NCBI RefSeq assembly: GCF_000149955.1
Contig: NC_030992.1
Coordinates: 734,987-798,986, forward strand
DNA from: Fusarium oxysporum f. sp. lycopersici 4287
Taxonomy: Eukaryota; Ascomycota; Sordariomycetes; Hypocreales; Nectriaceae
Direction: 5' to 3'
DNA length: 64,000 bases
The first letter of the stretch is position 1; the number at the start of each line of letters is the position of its first letter. The notes under the pieces were generated by a model that ran no database searches, was not told where the DNA came from, and worked only from the letters and a program-made list of their open reading frames with translations. The translations under genes were made by a program, and so were the position numbers. Shown piece after piece: positions 8,165 through 17,646 of the stretch.

Positions 8165-8996
8165 CTCGACTTACACCAGAAAACACAAGGACAAGGACAA
8201 GAAATGACAAGACGGGAGACGAACGGGAACCCCGCTTGGCAATGCATTCTATTTATTACTTTTATTCCCCTGTCCATCACAGGACTTTAACAATCGAGAC
8301 CTGAAAGAATATTTTGTATTTGGTGGTGACTCGTCTTTTCTTTCTACCCCTCTATCTGGTATGTGCAAGGGTCCTGGTTGTAACCTCAGCCGCAAATCTG
8401 CAACCATTCACAACGCTTTGTCGTCTACTTCGTGGCGCGCTATGAGGTGCATCTTGCTTTTTAGGGAATAGTTCGAGGCAGATTTGGGTCGAGGGCGTTT
8501 TTAGTTGCCGTTGTCTTCTCCGATGTTTGGTGTTTCGAAGCGGCGCTGTTCCGCTGTATTTATCTGCAGCTGACAGCAAGGCTTTGATGCGTACCTTATT
8601 CCGAATAAGGTACCTTAGGTAGGTAAGGTAGCCTGTTGAGGAAGCAGACATGAGAGATGCTTTCCTTGGTAGTTCAGCGGCACCTACCTAAAAAAAACCT
8701 CTCAAAGTGGCACTTGCCTGGCTTATTTCCTTGTTTGCCATTCAAACCGAAAAATCATCTTTTGCACTCTCCTAGAACTTCATCTATCACCTGTACAAGC
8801 ATTCATCATTATAGTGCTGCAGCGTATTTCCCATCAACTCTGACGTCTATGTACAACAAGGCTCTACCAATGGTATCCAACACACCATGTGAGAGACGCC
8901 GGGGGCTGAGGATCCCAATCAGGTTGAAACAGCCCTCTGGTTCCTCATCCATAGCCTGATCTCTATTCCCCGCATTACAACATTACAATAGACGCC
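8165..8996. promoter_or_regulatory. Divergent intergenic region
   Basis: This 832-bp gap separates the divergently transcribed WW protein and NLR genes, so it should carry both promoters. Near 8600-8690 there are several copies of an ACCTTA/TAGGTAGGTA-type motif (ggtaccttaggtaggtaagg and cacctaccta). I see no supported gene. Confidence 0.5.
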
Positions 8997-11900
8997 ATGT
9001 CTGGAATGGAAGGCCTGAGCATCGTTGCAAACGTTATTGCCGTGGTTGACCTGTCTCTCAAAGTCATCTCGTGGTGCTCCAAGTACGCTCAAGACGTGAA
9101 AGACTCCAGCGACGGCCGCGCCCGGCTCCTGCAGGCAGCTATCACCTTGCATTATGAGTCCGGAAAAGCCCACGACCTTCTCTCTAGCAAAAGAGGCAAT
9201 AAACTGAAAGCATCTCAGAAGCTTGCCCAGGCTATGGGAAGCAGTGAGGTTCAGTTACGCGAGCTCGAAACTCTACTCTCGGATAAAGCCAGCTGCTCAA
9301 GTCTTAGGTGGCCGCTACGCAAGGAAAAGGTCGAGAGTGCTATTAGAAACATCGAGAATGCAATAAGGACCCTATTAGAAGTCCTTCAGATTGATACGAC
9401 GTAAGTACATACAGCCTTTCGCTTATACCCTGCATTGAATAGATATCGAAACAATGGGCCAAATACACATAGAAAGATATGAGCGCGATGTTTCCGGACC
9501 ATGCACCACTGAAAACCCAGTAAGGAAAGTTAATACTGAATGCTGATTATCATGCAGAAGAGTTATTCTTGACATCGACGATAGGACGGAAGCTGGTCAG
9601 CGAAGGGCAGCAATAGACCAGTTGCCATACGTTAGTGATGCGGCCTGGGACTCACATGCTGAGGAACATAACGCAACTTGTCTGAAGAACACCCGGATGG
9701 ATATTCTACAAGATATTAATGACTGGGTCGAAGATACAGCCGATCAGGCGAAAACGGTGTTCTGGCTGAATGGAATGGCGGGAACTGGAAAGTCCACCAT
9801 TTCACGTACGATTGCTCGCTCTCTATTCGAGACCAAGAGACTCGGTGCATCGTTCTTCTTCAAGCGTGGAGAGACTAACAGAGGGAGCATCTCCAGATTC
9901 GTCCCGACAATCGCGCGTCAGCTTGTGGCGAATCAACCAGTCCTCGAGCCTTATATCCATGAGGCAGTCCTCCACGAGCCATCTATTACTAGCAAAGCCG
10001 TCAGAGTTCAATTTGAAAGACTCATTATGGAACCTCTTTCTCGATGTCCAAACGATTTCCACACAGACACCCCAATCGCTATCATCGTGGATGCACTGGA
10101 TGAATGCGAGTCGGATGCTGATATTTATCTTATTATCAACCTATTGTCTAGCACACGAAAGATCCAAAGGCCAAGGCCACGGATATTTGTGACGAGCCGC
10201 CCAGACCTCCCCATCCGTTTGGGTTTCAATGATGTACAGGGGACTTATCAAGATCTTATCCTTCACGAGATACCTGCTCAAGTGATAGAACACGATATAA
10301 CAATATTCTTGGAGCACGAAACAGAGCAGATTAAAAGACGATGGAACCATTCAGTTGCTGAGATACGAAGATTGGCAACCGACTGTCCTGGAAACGAATG
10401 CATTCGGCTACTCACAAGAAGGGCAGCACCCCTTTTCATTGTGGCTGCGACCGAATGCCGCTTCATAGCCGATCGAAGGCACGGTAGCCCCGAGGAGCAG
10501 CTGCATAGGCTCCTGAATTCGTCAGCTGATAGCACCTCATCTCAAATGGACCGTACTTACGGATCAGTTCTAAGTCAGCTGCTTGGTTCAAATTGTTCCA
10601 AGCGCAAGAAGGAAGCGATCATTCACGAGGTCAAACGAATAGTCGGTACAATCATTAACCTCGCTAGCCCACTATCATCATCCGCACTTTCGAGGCTTGT
10701 GAAAATCGACCAGAAAACCATTGACACTAGACTGGATTTTCTCCATTCGGTACTTAGCGTCCCTTCCTCTTCAGAAGCACCTATTCGGATGCTTCATGCG
10801 TCCTTTCGTGACTATCTAATGGACTTAGACGCCAAAGGAAACCCGTTCTGGATCGATGGGATTATCTCGGCACAAGCAATACTAAGGGACTGCTTCCGGG
10901 TAATGGGAAGTCTTAAAGCCGATATTTGTCATTTGGGGTTTCCTGGAACGCCCCGTACAACCTTGAAAGCCGAGTTCATCGACGCATGTATACCTCTTGA
11001 GGTTCAATATGCATGCATATACTGGATACACCACCAAGTGGTGGCAGGAGTTGGCCATGGTGATGTCAAACGAATATTCGAATTTCTGGAAGAGCATCTC
11101 TTGCACTGGATTGAAGCTTTGAACCTGCTTGGGAGAGCATATCAAATAACTGGGCTCATTAGAAATCTGAGATCTATCCTGGATATCAAGGTAAGGAGTT
11201 AAATCGATTAAAGAGTTTTCAAGATTCTAACTTGATGTATCAGTCCGAAAGTGACAAGCAGTTGATCGCCTTCCTTGACGATGCGATTAGATTCGTTGAC
11301 ACGGATATGGAGACCATCAACTTGACACCTCTGCAAATATATTCCTCGGTCTTAGCATTTGCACCCACGAACAGTGTTGTCCAAAAGACATTTAGCGCAG
11401 ATACCCCGGGATGGATGGAAATTGTGACAGGCAGAAGATCCGACTGGGATCCGCGTCTACGTTCATTCCACAACTATAGCCACCAGAATGAGCACGTCAA
11501 ACTCAGCCATTCTACCATGTTTTCTCCAGACTCTAAACTTTTGTGTTCCACGTTTGGGGAAAGCTTGAGGATTTGGAGCTGTGATACAGGCGAATGCATC
11601 GAGGATCTCAAAACAGACGAAGACCCCCTGATGGCCGTTTCTCCGAATGGAAGATATCTAGCAGCGACTACAACAAATGCGAAATATCGAATACGTCTCC
11701 TGTCCCTGGAGTCGGTGGGACATCTTTCTGAGTTGGCACAGGACAAAGCTTTGGGTGCCTTGGCCTTCTCGAAAGATTCTGCGCTCCTGTGGACGTGCTC
11801 GATCGATGGAGAGGTGAAAGTCTGGGATGTGGAAACGAGAAAGTGTGTGAGAGAGCTCAAATATCCCGAGAACTGGGCGCAAACGATCAGATACCCTATC

Positions 11901-13706
11901 AAAATGGACAAAGACCCTTCATGGATTGACGAGGGTCAACTAACCTTTTCGATGAACTACAAACCAGTTTTGCTACTTTCAGAAGGAGAGACTCATGCGC
12001 ACATTCTGTTTCTTGAAAGTGGTGAAGAAAACCTATCTTTTGATATAGAAATATCTTGCAGTGATGTAAGTGATCCCATTCGTTTCTCACCCGATGGGAA
12101 ACTATTGGCCGCTCCCTCAGCTCATGGCTCAGTAATTATGATCTGGGATCTCCGGACTCGGGTGTGTCTATGGAAATTGGTCAGATATGATTTCTCTTAT
12201 ACCGAGGATTTGGTGCCTTCAGGTTCTCTCACGGGGCACTTATTGTTCTCACAAGACTCGGGACTTCTAGCGATAGCCTACCGCGATAGAAAGATACTGG
12301 TTTGGGATATGCAAAGCGGGGACTGCTCAGCAAAACTTGCTGTCAACTGCTCGACTCACCTACCCGTTATTGCGTTCTCCAGTGACAAGGAATTTCTCCT
12401 GATAGCAAATGAGATAGAAGTGGGATTTCGCGACCACATCGAGGCCTGGAACTTGAACAAAGGGTCTCGCATGGCAGCGACCAGATGTCACATGGACAAT
12501 ATTCAATATTTGTTGTTTTCTTCCGACGGGAAGAGTTTCGTTTCAGGGCTATTTGGTGGTGAGATAAAGCTATGGGACTGGCCGAGCTTCCTTGGAGAGT
12601 CTCTAGAAGACGCCAGGGAAATGAAATCCCTGGTTCTATCGCCTGATGCATCAATAGCAGCAGCATGTTATGGTGGCAACGAACTGAGAACGTGGGATGC
12701 TGTAACGGGCGAGATGCTCCAAGAGCTCACCACTGGGCTCGCACTCTCCAACATATTTTCGCTGTCATTCTCCCCCAATTCTTCATTCATAGCAACAGCA
12801 AACACTTCGAATGCTGCAGCAGTATGGAACGCACGCAATGGCCGCTGTGAATGGCAGTTCAGGGGATCCTCCCAAAATATTCAAGTGCAGTTTTCTCCAA
12901 ACTCACAACGCATAGCAGTAAGTCATGAGGGTCCGGAGTCTGGTTACAGAATCGATGTCTGGAAGCATGCCAGCGGGAGCTTCAGCCTCGAATACACCCG
13001 GAACAAAGCTTGGGGCGACTTCTTTATGTTTTCCCAGTGTGGAAGCGTGCTCTTCCTTGGGCATATGTCGGGGAAATGGGGATTTCATTGTGCCGCAGGT
13101 AAACTATTGCATGGAATACACATGGACCCAACACAATCAGAAGCACTATCGATGGCAATTTCAGGAGACTCTTCCGTCCTTGCCCTGGGGTTTAGATTCC
13201 AGGTTGAGGTCTGGGATCTGGAGTCAATGAGATGCATTAATCGATGGAAGTCTAAATTTGGTGCCAATTTGTCATTCTCTTCAACAGGAACCCTTTTAGC
13301 TGGTGGATCAGGTCAAACAACGCGAATCCGGGATTACATAACGGGGGAGGTGGTCGCGGACATTGAATTTGCTGAACAAGACCGGGAGATGCACAGCTTT
13401 CTGCCAGACAACTCTGGAATACGCACCAACTACGGAGATATCGTTCTTAGCTCAAGTACAGTCCCCCAACAGCATCTCGCGCCAAAATTCGGACTCAAAG
13501 ACAGGTGGATCCAGTGGAACGGGCATAATTTGATTAAACTTCCAGTCAATTTGTCAGGGGTTGAGACTGCTGTCACAGGAACGGCTTGCGAACTCACTAT
13601 TGCTTTTGGGTGTAGCTGGGAGAGGGTCGTTATTCTCAAACTCTCAGAAGACGAAGAGCTACTAAAACTGCTTCCTCTCCTTGAAGAGACTACACATATC
13701 GCCTAG
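8997..13706 (+). CDS. NLR-like STAND protein: HeLo-like domain, NACHT, WD40 repeats
   Basis: Three exons, 8997-9400, 9558-11190 and 11244-13706, with all phases matching, give 1499 aa. Residues 1-135 form a helical N-terminal domain of the HeLo-like/STAND type (MEGLSIVANVIAVVDLSLKV). The NACHT NTPase follows, with Walker A GMAGTGKST at 207-215 and Walker B IIVDALDEC at 310-318, then a winged-helix-like region. About 12 divergent WD40 repeats span roughly 765-1380 (IWDLRTRVCLW, VWDMQSGDC, VWDLESMRC). This is the plan of fungal heterokaryon-incompatibility and immune receptors: the WD40 part senses, NACHT oligomerises, and the N-terminal domain executes. Unlike HET-E/HET-D, the repeats are not near-identical. 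It lies head-to-head with the WW gene and next to another NLR gene. Confidence 0.9.
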
Positions 13707-14699: not shown

Positions 14700-16150
14700 T
14701 CATGGTGCTTTCCCGGTTTTGAGGTGAGTCTTATGGGGATAAGTGCTGGCGACAATGTTGACTGCCACTCCAGCAAAGTACTCTTCTCCCTTCCTTGGAA
14801 CCCCTTTGCTACTTCCATTATTCGCAAACCGTCTCTTAATGCACGCTCCCAATCTACGAGAGTCTTTATTCGCTTTTTTCGCATGCCCGTCCAATATGCT
14901 TGCATTTCGTAGCTTGTAACGTATGGCATCTTTGACGAGCTTGTGTATCTCATAAATGCGTTCATTATTGCCGAGATGGTGCTCTATTAGGAAGGAGAAG
15001 TTCTTGAGTCGACGTATTGCTTCTCTCTTCTTACTCTCAAACATGTCTTCCATCGGCTTTGTTTCTCCATGCGCAGCAGCAGCATCCAATAACCGCTCAG
15101 TAATCTCCTGTTTATCCATGTAGGCAAGGATGTGTAGAATTTTGTATGCCAACTCGTTCTCTTGGCGAATGAGATGAACCGAAGAACTCCAAGTCTCAAG
15201 AATGCTGTTGGAACTGTTGTGTAACCTATATCTGTCGAACTCGGGTTCTTTCGAGATGCGCCAACGTGTTTCCTCTTCTTTCAAGTCATTAAGATACTGG
15301 CTGACGGACGTCTCTGTTCTTCGCATGTATGCCCCAGCTTGCGAAATAGCAAGCGGCAGAAACCGTAGCTCTTCAAGTAACAGAGTAGCATCATCTGGCT
15401 CATCATCACCTATTGATTGAGGCATTGTCGACTCAAGAAGTGCCTTGCTTTCATCAAAAGTCATCCTTGAGACAGCTACACCTCTCCATACGCCTACAAG
15501 ACTCCCAACAATTGCTTCGTCACGGCTGATCCACAAAATAGTGCCATTTGGGCCTTTCGGGATGTAATTTATCATCTTGCTGGTGTTTCTTGCTGCTAAA
15601 CCGACGCCAAGTAAAGACAAGTCGTCGGCATTGTCGATGATAAGTAGCCATCTAGGTAACGATTCAATTCTATGTCGGACGTTTTGTAGAAGCTCAGGCA
15701 CAGAACCTTGAGCGTTCATGCCCAGAACGCTTGCAATTGAGCCATAATCTTGTGCAAAGGTCGCCTCGCTATTTGCATGAACCCAAAAGACGGAGCTTTG
15801 TCTTTTACTGTATCGACTATATGCGAAATCCAGAGCGATTTGCGTCTTGCTGTCAATTTGATGTGAGTGACGTTCTTGTGACAATCTCAGTAGGCTTACC
15901 CAGATCCTTCGAGGCCCCAAAGAGCGGCGCTTCGAAAGTCGTCGGAATTCTTTGGTAGAAGTTCCTCAAGTTTGGATAATATTTCAGGCCGCGTAACAAA
16001 ATCTTCATGTTTCTCATAGGGAAACAGAAAGAACGGCCTCGGCTCAAAACGTTGATTGAAGTTGAAGGTTTGGTGAGCGTTGCCTGTAGCACTGATCCCT
16101 GTCACAACGTTGCTCCCGTAGACAGGGTCGTCAAATCTTGGGCCAGCCAT
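14700..16150 (-). CDS. Short NB-ARC NLR with N-terminal amyloid-like motif
   Basis: Exons 16150-15900 and 15849-14700 with a 50-bp intron give 466 aa. The intron interrupts Walker A exactly (GLEGSG|KT, residues 79-86). Walker B is LLIIDNADD at 152-160, a GLPL-like LRFLPLAISQAGAYM follows, and an MHD-like IHKLV lies in the winged-helix part. Relatives usually continue into TPR repeats for several hundred residues. This one stops soon after the YFAGVAVNIVAS segment, so it is C-terminally short, probably truncated. Residues 14-31 (NVVTGISATGNAHQTFNF) form a G/N/Q-rich motif before the NTPase, like the amyloid motifs that let NLRs nucleate a partner. A similar motif ends the divergent neighbour at 16453-17646. 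Confidence 0.82.
16058..16111 (-). other. N-terminal amyloid-like signalling motif of the NB-ARC protein
   Basis: Codons 14-31 read N-V-V-T-G-x4-G-x3-Q-x3-F. The same spacing, one residue shorter, occurs at the C-terminus of the adjacent phosphorylase-like protein. Identical positions are N14, T17, G18, G23, Q27 and F31. The match is by eye only. Confidence 0.6.
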
Positions 16151-16452
16151 TTTTTTCAGTATAAGATGATGTCTGAGATGATCAAGATGTTTTTACTGCA
16201 AGATATCGTGAGACAAATTCGCGTGTCGAGTTCCATATCCCTCAAGGACGATCAGATCAGGTCGTGGCCAATCGACGTGATCACCTTGCCGCCCAAGGCC
16301 CTGGTCAGGATCCGTAAATCGAGCCTGGATGAAACACTATCATGCTTCTCGATCTTGTCCATTTCGCAGGCGCTTAAGGCTTCTTTTCTCCTCAACTCGA
16401 CAGAAACCCTGTACTTTTTTTTCGGTATGCAAATCCGTGGTTGTGAGATCCA
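16151..16452. promoter_or_regulatory. Shared divergent promoter region of the NLR/effector pair
   Basis: Only 302 bp separate the start codons of the NB-ARC gene (minus) and the phosphorylase-like gene (plus), so the promoters must overlap or be shared. Co-expression would fit a receptor/effector pair. I did not identify specific factor sites. Confidence 0.6.
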
Positions 16453-17646
16453 ATGATCGCTCCACCAAAAAGCCGCAATGACTTCCTAATTGGCATCATC
16501 TGTGCCCTTCCTCTTGAGTATGAGGCAGTTGGCCATGTTGTCGACGAGTTTTGGGAAATCAAGCTTGGGAGAGCGGTCGGCGACACAAACTCATACTCAT
16601 TCGGCCGCATCGGAGATGACAATATTGTTCTTGTCATGTCAGGCATGGGTAAGGCCAATGCTGCGAGTACGGCAGCGAGCCTTCACATCAGCTTTCCGAA
16701 CCTCGAACTTGTTCTGGTAACTGGGATCTGCGGTGGTGTTCCGACGTCTGATTCGAGTGCGGAACTTTTGCTGGGCGATGTTGTAATCAGCAAGGCTGTC
16801 GTTGAGTACGACCTTTTCCCAGGCAAACTTAGGAGCAAAAGCACCATCGATGATCGGTTAGCAAGACCGACGAGACATGTACGCAGTTTCGTTGCTCGTT
16901 TCGAGACAAACAGACTCCGCGACGCGCTTGAAGACAGGTCAGCTCTCATCTTGGAAGAGCTTCAATCACGAGCCGGGGTGGAGGGCCAGGATTCGATCTA
17001 TCAATATCCTGGGGCAGACAAGGACTGTCTATTTATTCCCTCATATCGACACAGGCACCAATCGGACTGTGATATTTGCACATCTGACTCTAAAGAGGTG
17101 TGCGACGCAAGTCGCAAGATTTCGTGCTCCGAGCTTGGATGTGATGAGGAACAGCTTCTTGCCCGAAAGCGTCTCGACCAGAATCGTAAACTCCAGAAGG
17201 ATGGTCGCGAGAAAGAGGCTCAAGCCCCATTCGTGTTTGTTGGCCATTTCGGTTCGGGAGACACTGTCCTCAAATCAGGCGAAGAACGCGATAGGCTTGC
17301 ACGAGCTCATGATATCATCGCATTTGAGATGGAGGGTGCTGGCGTCTGGGAAGAGATACCGTGTATTATCGTTAAGGGCGTATGTGACTACGCCGATAGC
17401 CATAAGAACAAGGGATGGCAGAACTTTGCGGCTGCAACGGCGGCAGCGGTGACGAAGGCTCTCATTGAAGAGTATCCCAAGACTGATAAACCCAGAAAGC
17501 AAATTGATGATAGCAGCAGAGCTGAGAGCGAGGAAAGTAGTGAAGTGGGCAGGGATGCGCCAGTATTTTATGCCGATGTGTCAAAGTGCAATATTTTCAC
17601 TGGATTTCATTCAAGTGGTGGAACGCAGGTTATCAAATTTGGATGA
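16453..17646 (+). CDS. PNP/UDP-phosphorylase-like protein with C-terminal amyloid-like motif
   Basis: A single exon of 397 aa. Residues about 10-345 are a nucleoside phosphorylase fold (PNP_UDP type): IGIICALPLEYEAV at the N-terminus, MSGMGKANAA, VTGICGGVP, FEMEGAGVWEE near 290-300, and GVCDYADSHKNKGW near 310-323. An acidic/serine linker (about 350-368) follows, then residues 380-396, NIFTGFHSSGGTQVIKF, end the protein. PNP_UDP domains are known in fungi as N-terminal domains of NLRs and as predicted NLR effectors. The tail resembles the N-terminal motif of the divergently transcribed NB-ARC protein. I infer that it is a free effector recruited by that NLR. Whether it acts on nucleosides/NAD-like substrates or by another route cannot be told from sequence. 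Confidence 0.85.
   Translation: MIAPPKSRNDFLIGIICALPLEYEAVGHVVDEFWEIKLGRAVGDTNSYSFGRIGDDNIVLVMSGMGKANAASTAASLHISFPNLELVLVTGICGGVPTSDSSAELLLGDVVISKAVVEYDLFPGKLRSKSTIDDRLARPTRHVRSFVARFETNRLRDALEDRSALILEELQSRAGVEGQDSIYQYPGADKDCLFIPSYRHRHQSDCDICTSDSKEVCDASRKISCSELGCDEEQLLARKRLDQNRKLQKDGREKEAQAPFVFVGHFGSGDTVLKSGEERDRLARAHDIIAFEMEGAGVWEEIPCIIVKGVCDYADSHKNKGWQNFAAATAAAVTKALIEEYPKTDKPRKQIDDSSRAESEESSEVGRDAPVFYADVSKCNIFTGFHSSGGTQVIKFG
17590..17640 (+). other. C-terminal amyloid-like signalling motif of the effector candidate
   Basis: Codons 380-396, N-I-F-T-G-x4-G-x2-Q-x3-F, lie one residue from the C-terminus after a disordered linker. They share six identical positions with residues 14-31 of the neighbouring NB-ARC protein. 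Confidence 0.6.

What the first reader, a model, noticed from the sequence alone, without database searches (positions are those of the whole stretch)
14700..17646. Candidate amyloid-signalling NLR/effector pair with a phosphorylase-like effector
The NB-ARC protein (minus) carries NVVTGISATGNAHQTFNF at residues 14-31. The divergently transcribed PNP/UDP-phosphorylase-like protein (plus) ends with NIFTGFHSSGGTQVIKF at 380-396. Aligned with one gap they share N, T, G, G, Q and F, with V/I and A/S, T/S exchanges between. Seen directly: the motif match, the terminal placement (N-term in the NLR, C-term in the partner), a disordered linker before the motif, and 302 bp between start codons. Known: HET-S/NWD2 and the HELLP/SBP/PNT1 cluster use this layout, where the NLR motif templates an amyloid fold on the effector tail, and PNT1 is also NB-ARC-based. 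Inference: here the effector is an enzyme-like nucleoside phosphorylase rather than a pore-former. This may be a less-described member of the class or a new motif family.
Basis: partly seen in the sequence, partly recalled or inferred. Interest (0 to 1): 0.88.

Follow-up and report, generated by a model that had tools for sequence, protein, structure and literature searches.

The report
Fungal immune receptor and nucleosidase pair
In a Fusarium genome an immune-receptor-like gene sits beside a gene for a nucleoside-cleaving enzyme, and both carry the same short, conserved, amyloid-like tag; this is a known kind of fungal alarm circuit, but related fungi also keep a second version of the enzyme whose catalytic residues are gone while the tag is kept.

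Summary
The pair is real. On the two window sequences alone the motif match is not significant (1240 of 20000 shuffles do as well). Across the families it is: an effector-tail profile finds receptor heads (50 of 205 listed NLR homologues, within the first 40 residues) and a receptor-head profile finds 45 of 120 listed phosphorylase tails. Linked pairs occur in eleven further species; fused versions exist. Best reading: an NLR/effector pair using an amyloid-signalling-type motif to switch on an MTA/SAH-nucleosidase-like enzyme. Amyloid formation is untested. New here: receptors without TPR repeats in 20 Fusarium species or strains; the window's own tail is the worst match to its receptor of 45; and a second effector class (59% identical body, 85% identical tail) has lost two of three catalytic residues, suggesting a HET-S/HET-s-like live/dead pair.

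The parts
14700..16150 (-). NB-ARC/AAA_22-type NLR gene, 466 aa, CDS join(16150..15900, 15849..14700); NTPase and following region, no TPR repeats
   Evidence: model; Pfam AAA_22 3.8e-7 (above cut-off), DUF7779 2.4e-5 and NB-ARC 1.6e-4 (both below cut-off); 24 database clusters of 446-467 aa
15850..15899 (-). 50-nt intron (GT...AG) that interrupts the P-loop codons
   Evidence: phosphorylase-NB-ARC gene models of other species end at the same place (...AALWGLGGSG)
16058..16135 (-). N-terminal motif (head), NLR residues 6-31
   Evidence: effector-only HMM 19.3 bits, 0 of 20000 shuffles as high; alignment A2
16151..16452 (.). 302-bp divergent intergenic region
16453..17646 (+). PNP_UDP_1 effector gene, 397 aa, MTA/SAH-nucleosidase-like
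   Evidence: Pfam PF01048 9e-20; PADLOC 'PN-superfamily' effector 2.4e-13; Foldseek best matches are MTAN structures, E about 1e-14
16516..16518 (+). Glu22, aligned with MTAN Glu12
   Evidence: alignment; Glu in 116 of 120 homologues
17332..17334 (+). Glu294, aligned with MTAN Glu174
   Evidence: Glu in 120 of 120 homologues
17386..17388 (+). Asp312, aligned with MTAN Asp197
   Evidence: alignment; Asp in 111 of 120 homologues
17488..17559 (+). Variable, low-confidence linker, residues 346-369
17560..17643 (+). C-terminal motif (tail), residues 370-397

Best explanation
The two genes are a two-component fungal NLR/effector module. Shown: the STAND/NB-ARC protein has no N-terminal effector domain and begins with a 26-residue motif; the divergently transcribed MTA/SAH-nucleosidase-like protein ends with the same motif after a low-confidence linker; the arrangement recurs in other species. 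Inferred: on activation the NLR oligomerises, its heads stack into a beta-arch amyloid nucleus, this templates the effector tails, and the clustered nucleosidase domains become active and cleave a purine nucleotide or nucleoside (ATP is the best guess, from bacterial PNP effectors), leading to cell death or growth arrest.
For: Profiles built from one side only find the motif at the expected end of the other. Effector-only HMM (31 tails): best hit per protein at least 5 bits in 39 of 120 and 11 of 85 NLRs, within the first 40 residues, and only two best hits at 0 bits or more elsewhere (0.9 and 1.2). NLR-only HMM (16 heads): 45 of 120 phosphorylases at 4 bits or more, all within 15 residues of the C-end. 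Linkage: equal contig lengths for NLR and effector in ten species, consecutive locus tags in six, eleven species together. Receptor and effector motifs match better with their own partner than permuted (11 pairs, 114 of 100000 permutations as high). The same phosphorylase family is fused to the same NB-ARC subfamily, broken at the same intron place, in F. falciforme, F. solani-melongenae and unnamed sequences. The closest NLR paralogue in this genome (51% identical) carries a HeLo domain. Catalytic residues intact in the window effector. Bacterial PNP effectors cleave ATP (PMC11249213 and PMC10197012, passages).
Against: No amyloid, oligomerisation or enzyme data. The pairwise match in the window is not significant. 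The window tail is the worst of 45 for its own receptor, so templating in this strain may be weak. The receptor lacks the TPR sensor of its relatives. Fusarium receptors mostly do not prefer their own partner. 75 of the 120 listed phosphorylase homologues lack the motif; some of these are fusions or fragments. The permutation test does not remove phylogeny.
Confidence: 0.74

Rival explanations
1. The shared motif mediates an ordinary, non-amyloid contact (a short beta-addition or docking peptide) between receptor and enzyme.
For: Nothing run here distinguishes amyloid from other homotypic binding; no Pfam model hits the 24 heads and tails scanned.
Against: Layout, length, Gly/Asn/Gln/Ser-rich pattern and association with PNP_UDP follow described amyloid signalling motifs.
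Confidence: 0.15
2. HET-S/HET-s-like polymorphism (not exclusive of the best explanation): the effector exists as a catalytically intact class (A, in the window) and a class with lost catalytic residues (B) that share one tail; contact between fused hyphae carrying A and B would let prion-form B convert and activate A, giving incompatibility, with the truncated receptor now secondary.
For: Only B (4 of 120 homologues) lacks Glu22, and the same four have Asn for Asp312 and Thr for Met293; A-B bodies 59% identical, tails 85%, the largest tail excess of 21 group comparisons; A found in the window, redolens and verticillioides, B in clusters named for F. oxysporum, sp. NRRL 52700, sp. DS 682 and proliferatum; A (redolens), B (NRRL 52700) and C (coicis) effectors each share a contig length with a homologous NLR; this genome has A only.
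Against: Allelism is inferred from one genome and from contig lengths; no strain pairing data; A and B could be paralogues lost at random; Asn for Asp312 also occurs in four homologues that keep Glu22, and Thr for Met293 in two more, so the changes could alter specificity rather than kill the enzyme.
Confidence: 0.22
3. A decaying module: the receptor lost its repeats, the tail drifts, and the locus is on its way to pseudogene.
For: No TPR remnant found downstream; own head-tail score 29-36 in the three A pairs and 52 in the B pair against 63-78 in coicis, austroafricanum and sarcochroum (the verticillioides pair joins two strains).
Against: Receptor of 446-467 aa in 24 clusters from 20 Fusarium species or strains, head nearly invariant; effector active site intact in A.
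Confidence: 0.12
4. Chance resemblance of two low-complexity ends.
For: Window-only shuffles: 1240 of 20000 as good.
Against: Two-way family profiles and recurrence in linked pairs.
Confidence: 0.02

Closest known systems
UDP-phosphorylase/STAND pairs with sigma-type extensions (Daskalov et al. 2012, PMC3321046; passages seen)
   Same: Stand-alone phosphorylase domain beside an NLR without effector domain, shared C-/N-terminal motif
   Different: Those named come from Aspergillus oryzae, A. terreus and Magnaporthe and have sigma-type extensions; sigma is defined by three-fold repeats, here there is a single motif with one GGTQ
PNP_UDP-associated motifs NLR12 (HRAM3-like), PUASM and PF01048_015 (Wojciechowski et al. 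2022, PMC9815663; passages and section 20 seen, supplements not readable here)
   Same: PNP_UDP effector with a single C-terminal motif; NLR12 is 26 residues, Sordariomycetes, mostly NLR position 5-9, like this one
   Different: PUASM pattern absent; the NLR12 and PF01048_015 profiles could not be read, so identity with either is open
HET-S/NWD2 of Podospora anserina (PMC3321046 passages, PMC4518210 passages, PMC3531502 outline)
   Same: Divergent adjacent genes, NLR head templating an effector tail; toxic and nontoxic allelic forms of the effector
   Different: HeLo pore-former with two repeats; here a nucleosidase-like enzyme with one motif without the HRAM glycine
Bacterial PNP immune effectors (Detocs; PADLOC 'PN-superfamily' effector)
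   Same: Same nucleosidase superfamily used as an immune effector (PADLOC 2.4e-13; Detocs from PMC11249213 passages)
   Different: Activated by other sensors; substrate of the fungal protein unknown

Membership tests
Fungal NLR/effector amyloid-signalling pair (general kind) | NLR without N-terminal effector domain carrying a short N-terminal motif | tested here: met
Fungal NLR/effector amyloid-signalling pair (general kind) | Effector domain with the same motif at its C-end, encoded by a neighbouring gene | tested here: met
Fungal NLR/effector amyloid-signalling pair (general kind) | Concerted evolution of the two motifs | tested here: inconclusive
   11 pairs: 114 of 100000 permutations; own partner ranks first in 4 of 11, last in the window; phylogeny not removed
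Fungal NLR/effector amyloid-signalling pair (general kind) | Amyloid/prion formation and cross-seeding | not testable with these tools
   bench work needed
HRAM (HET-s-related motif) | Conserved Gly at position 19 and preference for Arg/Lys at 15 | tested here: not met
   0 of 46 pattern-picked heads with Gly19, 2 of 46 with Arg/Lys15; 1 of 43 pattern-picked tails with Gly19; positions from PMC4518210; register assumed by me
HRAM (HET-s-related motif) | Two copies in the effector | tested here: not met
   single copy
sigma | Submotifs GxGxQFNxx / GGTQNINT repeated three times | tested here: not met
   one GGTQ only, read directly; consensus from PMC3321046; no Pfam sigma hit
PP | NxGxQxGxN core | tested here: not met
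   regex: 1 of 120 tails (P0112, which lacks our motif), 0 of 205 heads
PUASM | FxGxGxQxxGxGxF | tested here: not met
   0 of 120 tails, 0 of 205 heads; another phosphorylase in this genome does show it, read by eye (L006 tail)
GDQN | NxxxGxQYxxxGxGDQN... | tested here: not met
   0 of 120 tails, 0 of 205 heads; pattern from PMC12261475
NLR12 / PF01048_015 (2022 motifs) | Match to the published profile | not testable with these tools
MTA/SAH nucleosidase (catalytic machinery) | Glu12, Glu174, Asp197 equivalents | tested here: met
   E22, E294, D312 in the window protein; the four B-type relatives keep only E294. That these three are the catalytic residues is recalled; PDB titles 1z5n and 1z5o name the Glu12 and Asp197 mutants

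The most novel reading that the evidence does not exclude
The locus is an enzyme-based counterpart of HET-S/HET-s: two old, trans-species effector classes share one amyloid tail, one with an intact nucleosidase site (A) and one with catalytic residues lost (B), and their contact in fused hyphae triggers A's activity as an allorecognition reaction, while the NLR that once controlled it has lost its sensor repeats.
Probability: 0.22. Interest if true: 0.87.

Novelty: new variant of a known kind. Interest (0 to 1): 0.56.

Why it matters
Purine and uridine phosphorylases are among the four largest effector families of fungal NLRs (PMC9815663 passage). This pair gives a compact example in a well-studied genus, with the fused one-gene version in relatives and a natural class with lost catalytic residues as a built-in control. 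If A and B behave like HET-S and HET-s, it would show that prion-based allorecognition can run on an enzyme rather than on a membrane pore, and would make the question of what fungal PNP effectors cleave directly testable.

Tried and rejected
Window-only pairwise statistics: not significant, so not used as support. A third motif copy elsewhere in the window: the best other hit (11.2 bits, E 0.09, about 4.8-5.0 kb minus) lies antisense to a long plus-strand ORF and is taken as chance. A hidden TPR region downstream of the NLR stop: tblastn with three TPR-bearing relatives finds none; stray hits of E 0.6-0.7 lie at 37.7 and 56.2 kb. A B-type effector elsewhere in this genome: none seen (next phosphorylase after the window's own is 49% identical). 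Pfam on 24 heads and tails: no hit listed at E up to 10, but HMMER's filters drop most weak matches. Papers on MTAN Glu12/Asp197 mutants: two searches gave nothing useful. Papers naming this pair or motif in Fusarium oxysporum: I saw none in the listings or in the passages opened; most listed papers were not opened and no supplement could be read, so this is not proof of absence. Seed choice: the 31 tails and 16 heads of the two profiles were picked by a text pattern and by eye; neither set holds members of the other side. Homologue lists are capped: the best 120 of 3619 phosphorylases, of 368 NLRs and of 174 NLRs (of which 85 were new). For one search I used one pair per lineage (11) and left out redolens, NRRL 52700, albosuccineum and verticillioides; two of the 11 (Colletotrichum somersetense, Thelonectria olida) are same-species only, not shown linked.

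Full report
Where it is. The window is contig C7, 734987-798986, of a 61.2-Mb genome. Two of its contig lengths (C8 3984410, C3 5634991) equal those given for FOXG_15699 and FOXG_06903 of Fusarium oxysporum f. sp. lycopersici 4287, so that is most likely the strain.

The observation. Both proteins are as described, with one 50-nt intron in the receptor gene. The receptor hits AAA_22 above cut-off and DUF7779 and NB-ARC below; relatives 55-63% identical over the shared region carry TPR repeats. The effector is PNP_UDP_1, closest by sequence and fold to bacterial MTA/SAH nucleosidases (Foldseek E about 1e-14, TM-score by target 0.62-0.73 in the 50 rows shown; NCBIfam equivalog cut-offs not reached), with residues aligned to Glu12, Glu174 and Asp197 in place.

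Chance. The two window ends alone do not pass: 1240 of 20000 shuffles match as well. The families do. A profile from 31 effector tails scores the window receptor head 19.3 bits; the best of 20000 shuffled heads gets 8.6. Counting the best hit per protein, it reaches 5 bits in 39 of the 120 receptors listed and in 11 of the 85 new ones, all within the first 40 residues; best hits of 0 bits or more elsewhere are two, at 0.9 and 1.2 bits. A few further heads score between 0 and 5 bits and are not counted. The reverse profile, from 16 receptor heads, reaches 4 bits in 45 of the 120 phosphorylases listed, all within 15 residues of the C-end. The motif runs about 26-28 residues, majority consensus PVFxGxVxGSNVxTGxxxSGGTQTFNF.

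Linkage and concerted change. Lineage-specific variants go together: NVVAG in receptor and effector of Colletotrichum somersetense, a Y..P variant in both of Ilyonectria destructans, mostly NVxTG-like forms in Fusarium; Thelonectria olida differs (NVLAG against NVVSG). Over 11 pairs the own-partner sum is reached by 114 of 100000 permutations, but the own partner ranks first in only 4 of 11, most Fusarium receptors fit other Fusarium tails as well or better, and the window receptor ranks its own tail last; over 45 motif-bearing tails the window's own is the worst.

Rosetta evidence. Phosphorylase homologues P0019, P0022, P0024, P0025 and P0034 run into the start of the same NB-ARC subfamily and end at ...AALWGLGGSG, where the window receptor has its intron; P0022 and P0216, which begins with the next exon, share the contig length 108320. 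P0069 and P0279 are annotated as PNP plus NB-ARC. In this genome at least three phosphorylase genes (two of them in duplicate) are followed at once by NB-ARC-like sequence on the same strand; their phosphorylase frames end in a stop first, so whether they are fusions with an intron or neighbours is open. The nearest receptor paralogue, FOXG_15699, has a HeLo domain in front.

Receptor without sensor. 24 of the 120 receptor clusters, from 20 named Fusarium species or strains, are 446-467 aa long with no TPR family listed and keep the head nearly unchanged; tblastn finds no TPR remnant beside the gene. Three clusters from proliferatum, anthophilum and coicis keep TPR.

Two effector classes. Bodies of A (window, redolens, verticillioides) and B (a 33-member cluster named for F. 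oxysporum NRRL 32931, NRRL 52700, DS 682, proliferatum) are 59% identical, tails 85%; among 21 between-group comparisons this tail excess of 26 points is the largest, the next being 14. The PNP tree groups A and B each across species with full support, whereas the receptor tree mostly follows species, with F. oxysporum in three places, one of them weakly supported. The four B sequences, and no others of 120, have lost Glu22 (His, His, Arg, His); all four also have Asn for Asp312 and Thr for Met293; Glu294 stays. Asp312 is also changed in P0042, P0049, P0079, P0106 and P0111, which keep Glu22, and Met293 in P0060 and P0106, so those changes alone need not mean loss of function. This genome holds A only. 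That A and B are alleles is inference.

What is known. UDP-phosphorylase/STAND pairs with sigma-like extensions were reported in 2012 (PMC3321046, passages). In 2022 PNP_UDP effectors were linked to NLR12, PUASM and PF01048_015, and PP and sigma were found with both pore-forming and enzymatic effectors (PMC9815663, passages and section 20). A 2025 scan of F. oxysporum Fo5176 listed sigma, HET-s and GDQN motifs (PMC12261475, section 12); whether Fo5176 has this pair I did not check. Our motif fails the HRAM, PP, PUASM, GDQN and three-fold sigma definitions that could be tested, and no Pfam model hits it. Its length, place, clade and effector fit NLR12, whose profile I could not read; so it may be catalogued already. 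Its GGTQxFNF half resembles the sigma B submotif, which is a lead, not a test.

How it likely works. Shown: anatomy, conservation, linkage, intact active-site residues. Inferred: oligomerised heads seed tails, clustering activates the nucleosidase, and purine nucleotide loss kills or arrests the compartment. That PNP effectors can cleave ATP is taken from reviews of bacterial work (passages).

Noticed in passing
L006 (C3:2614420; copies C3:3515877, C6:1847959): Another phosphorylase of the same genome ends in VFHGKGTQNSGSGHFSIGKDLNIY, which by eye fits the published PUASM pattern FxGxGxQxxGxGxF; its neighbour genes were not looked at.
   Followed up: partly
L037, L040, L041, L044 and many of P0163-P0325: Related NLRs carry a different conserved head (like NSQFxDNTxIxQGNxxxN); phosphorylases P0067 and P0113 (Colletotrichum) end in a similar stretch (NNSFGNNxxxxQGD), suggesting a second head/tail class; seen by eye, not tested.
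   Followed up: no
window 9547-13706 plus (with an ORF at 8955-9404): A NACHT-WD40 NLR lies about 1 kb from the end of the NB-ARC gene; the ORF at 8955-9404, possibly its first exon, matches no Pfam family.
   Followed up: no
G000 contigs C1, C3, C6, C15: Several phosphorylase and NLR loci occur in two or three copies with identical scores on these contigs, which looks like duplicated accessory regions.
   Followed up: no
P0049, P0079, P0106, P0111: Phosphorylase homologues, one with NACHT-type domains, with Asn at the Asp197 equivalent but Glu22 and Glu294 kept: possibly altered specificity.
   Followed up: partly
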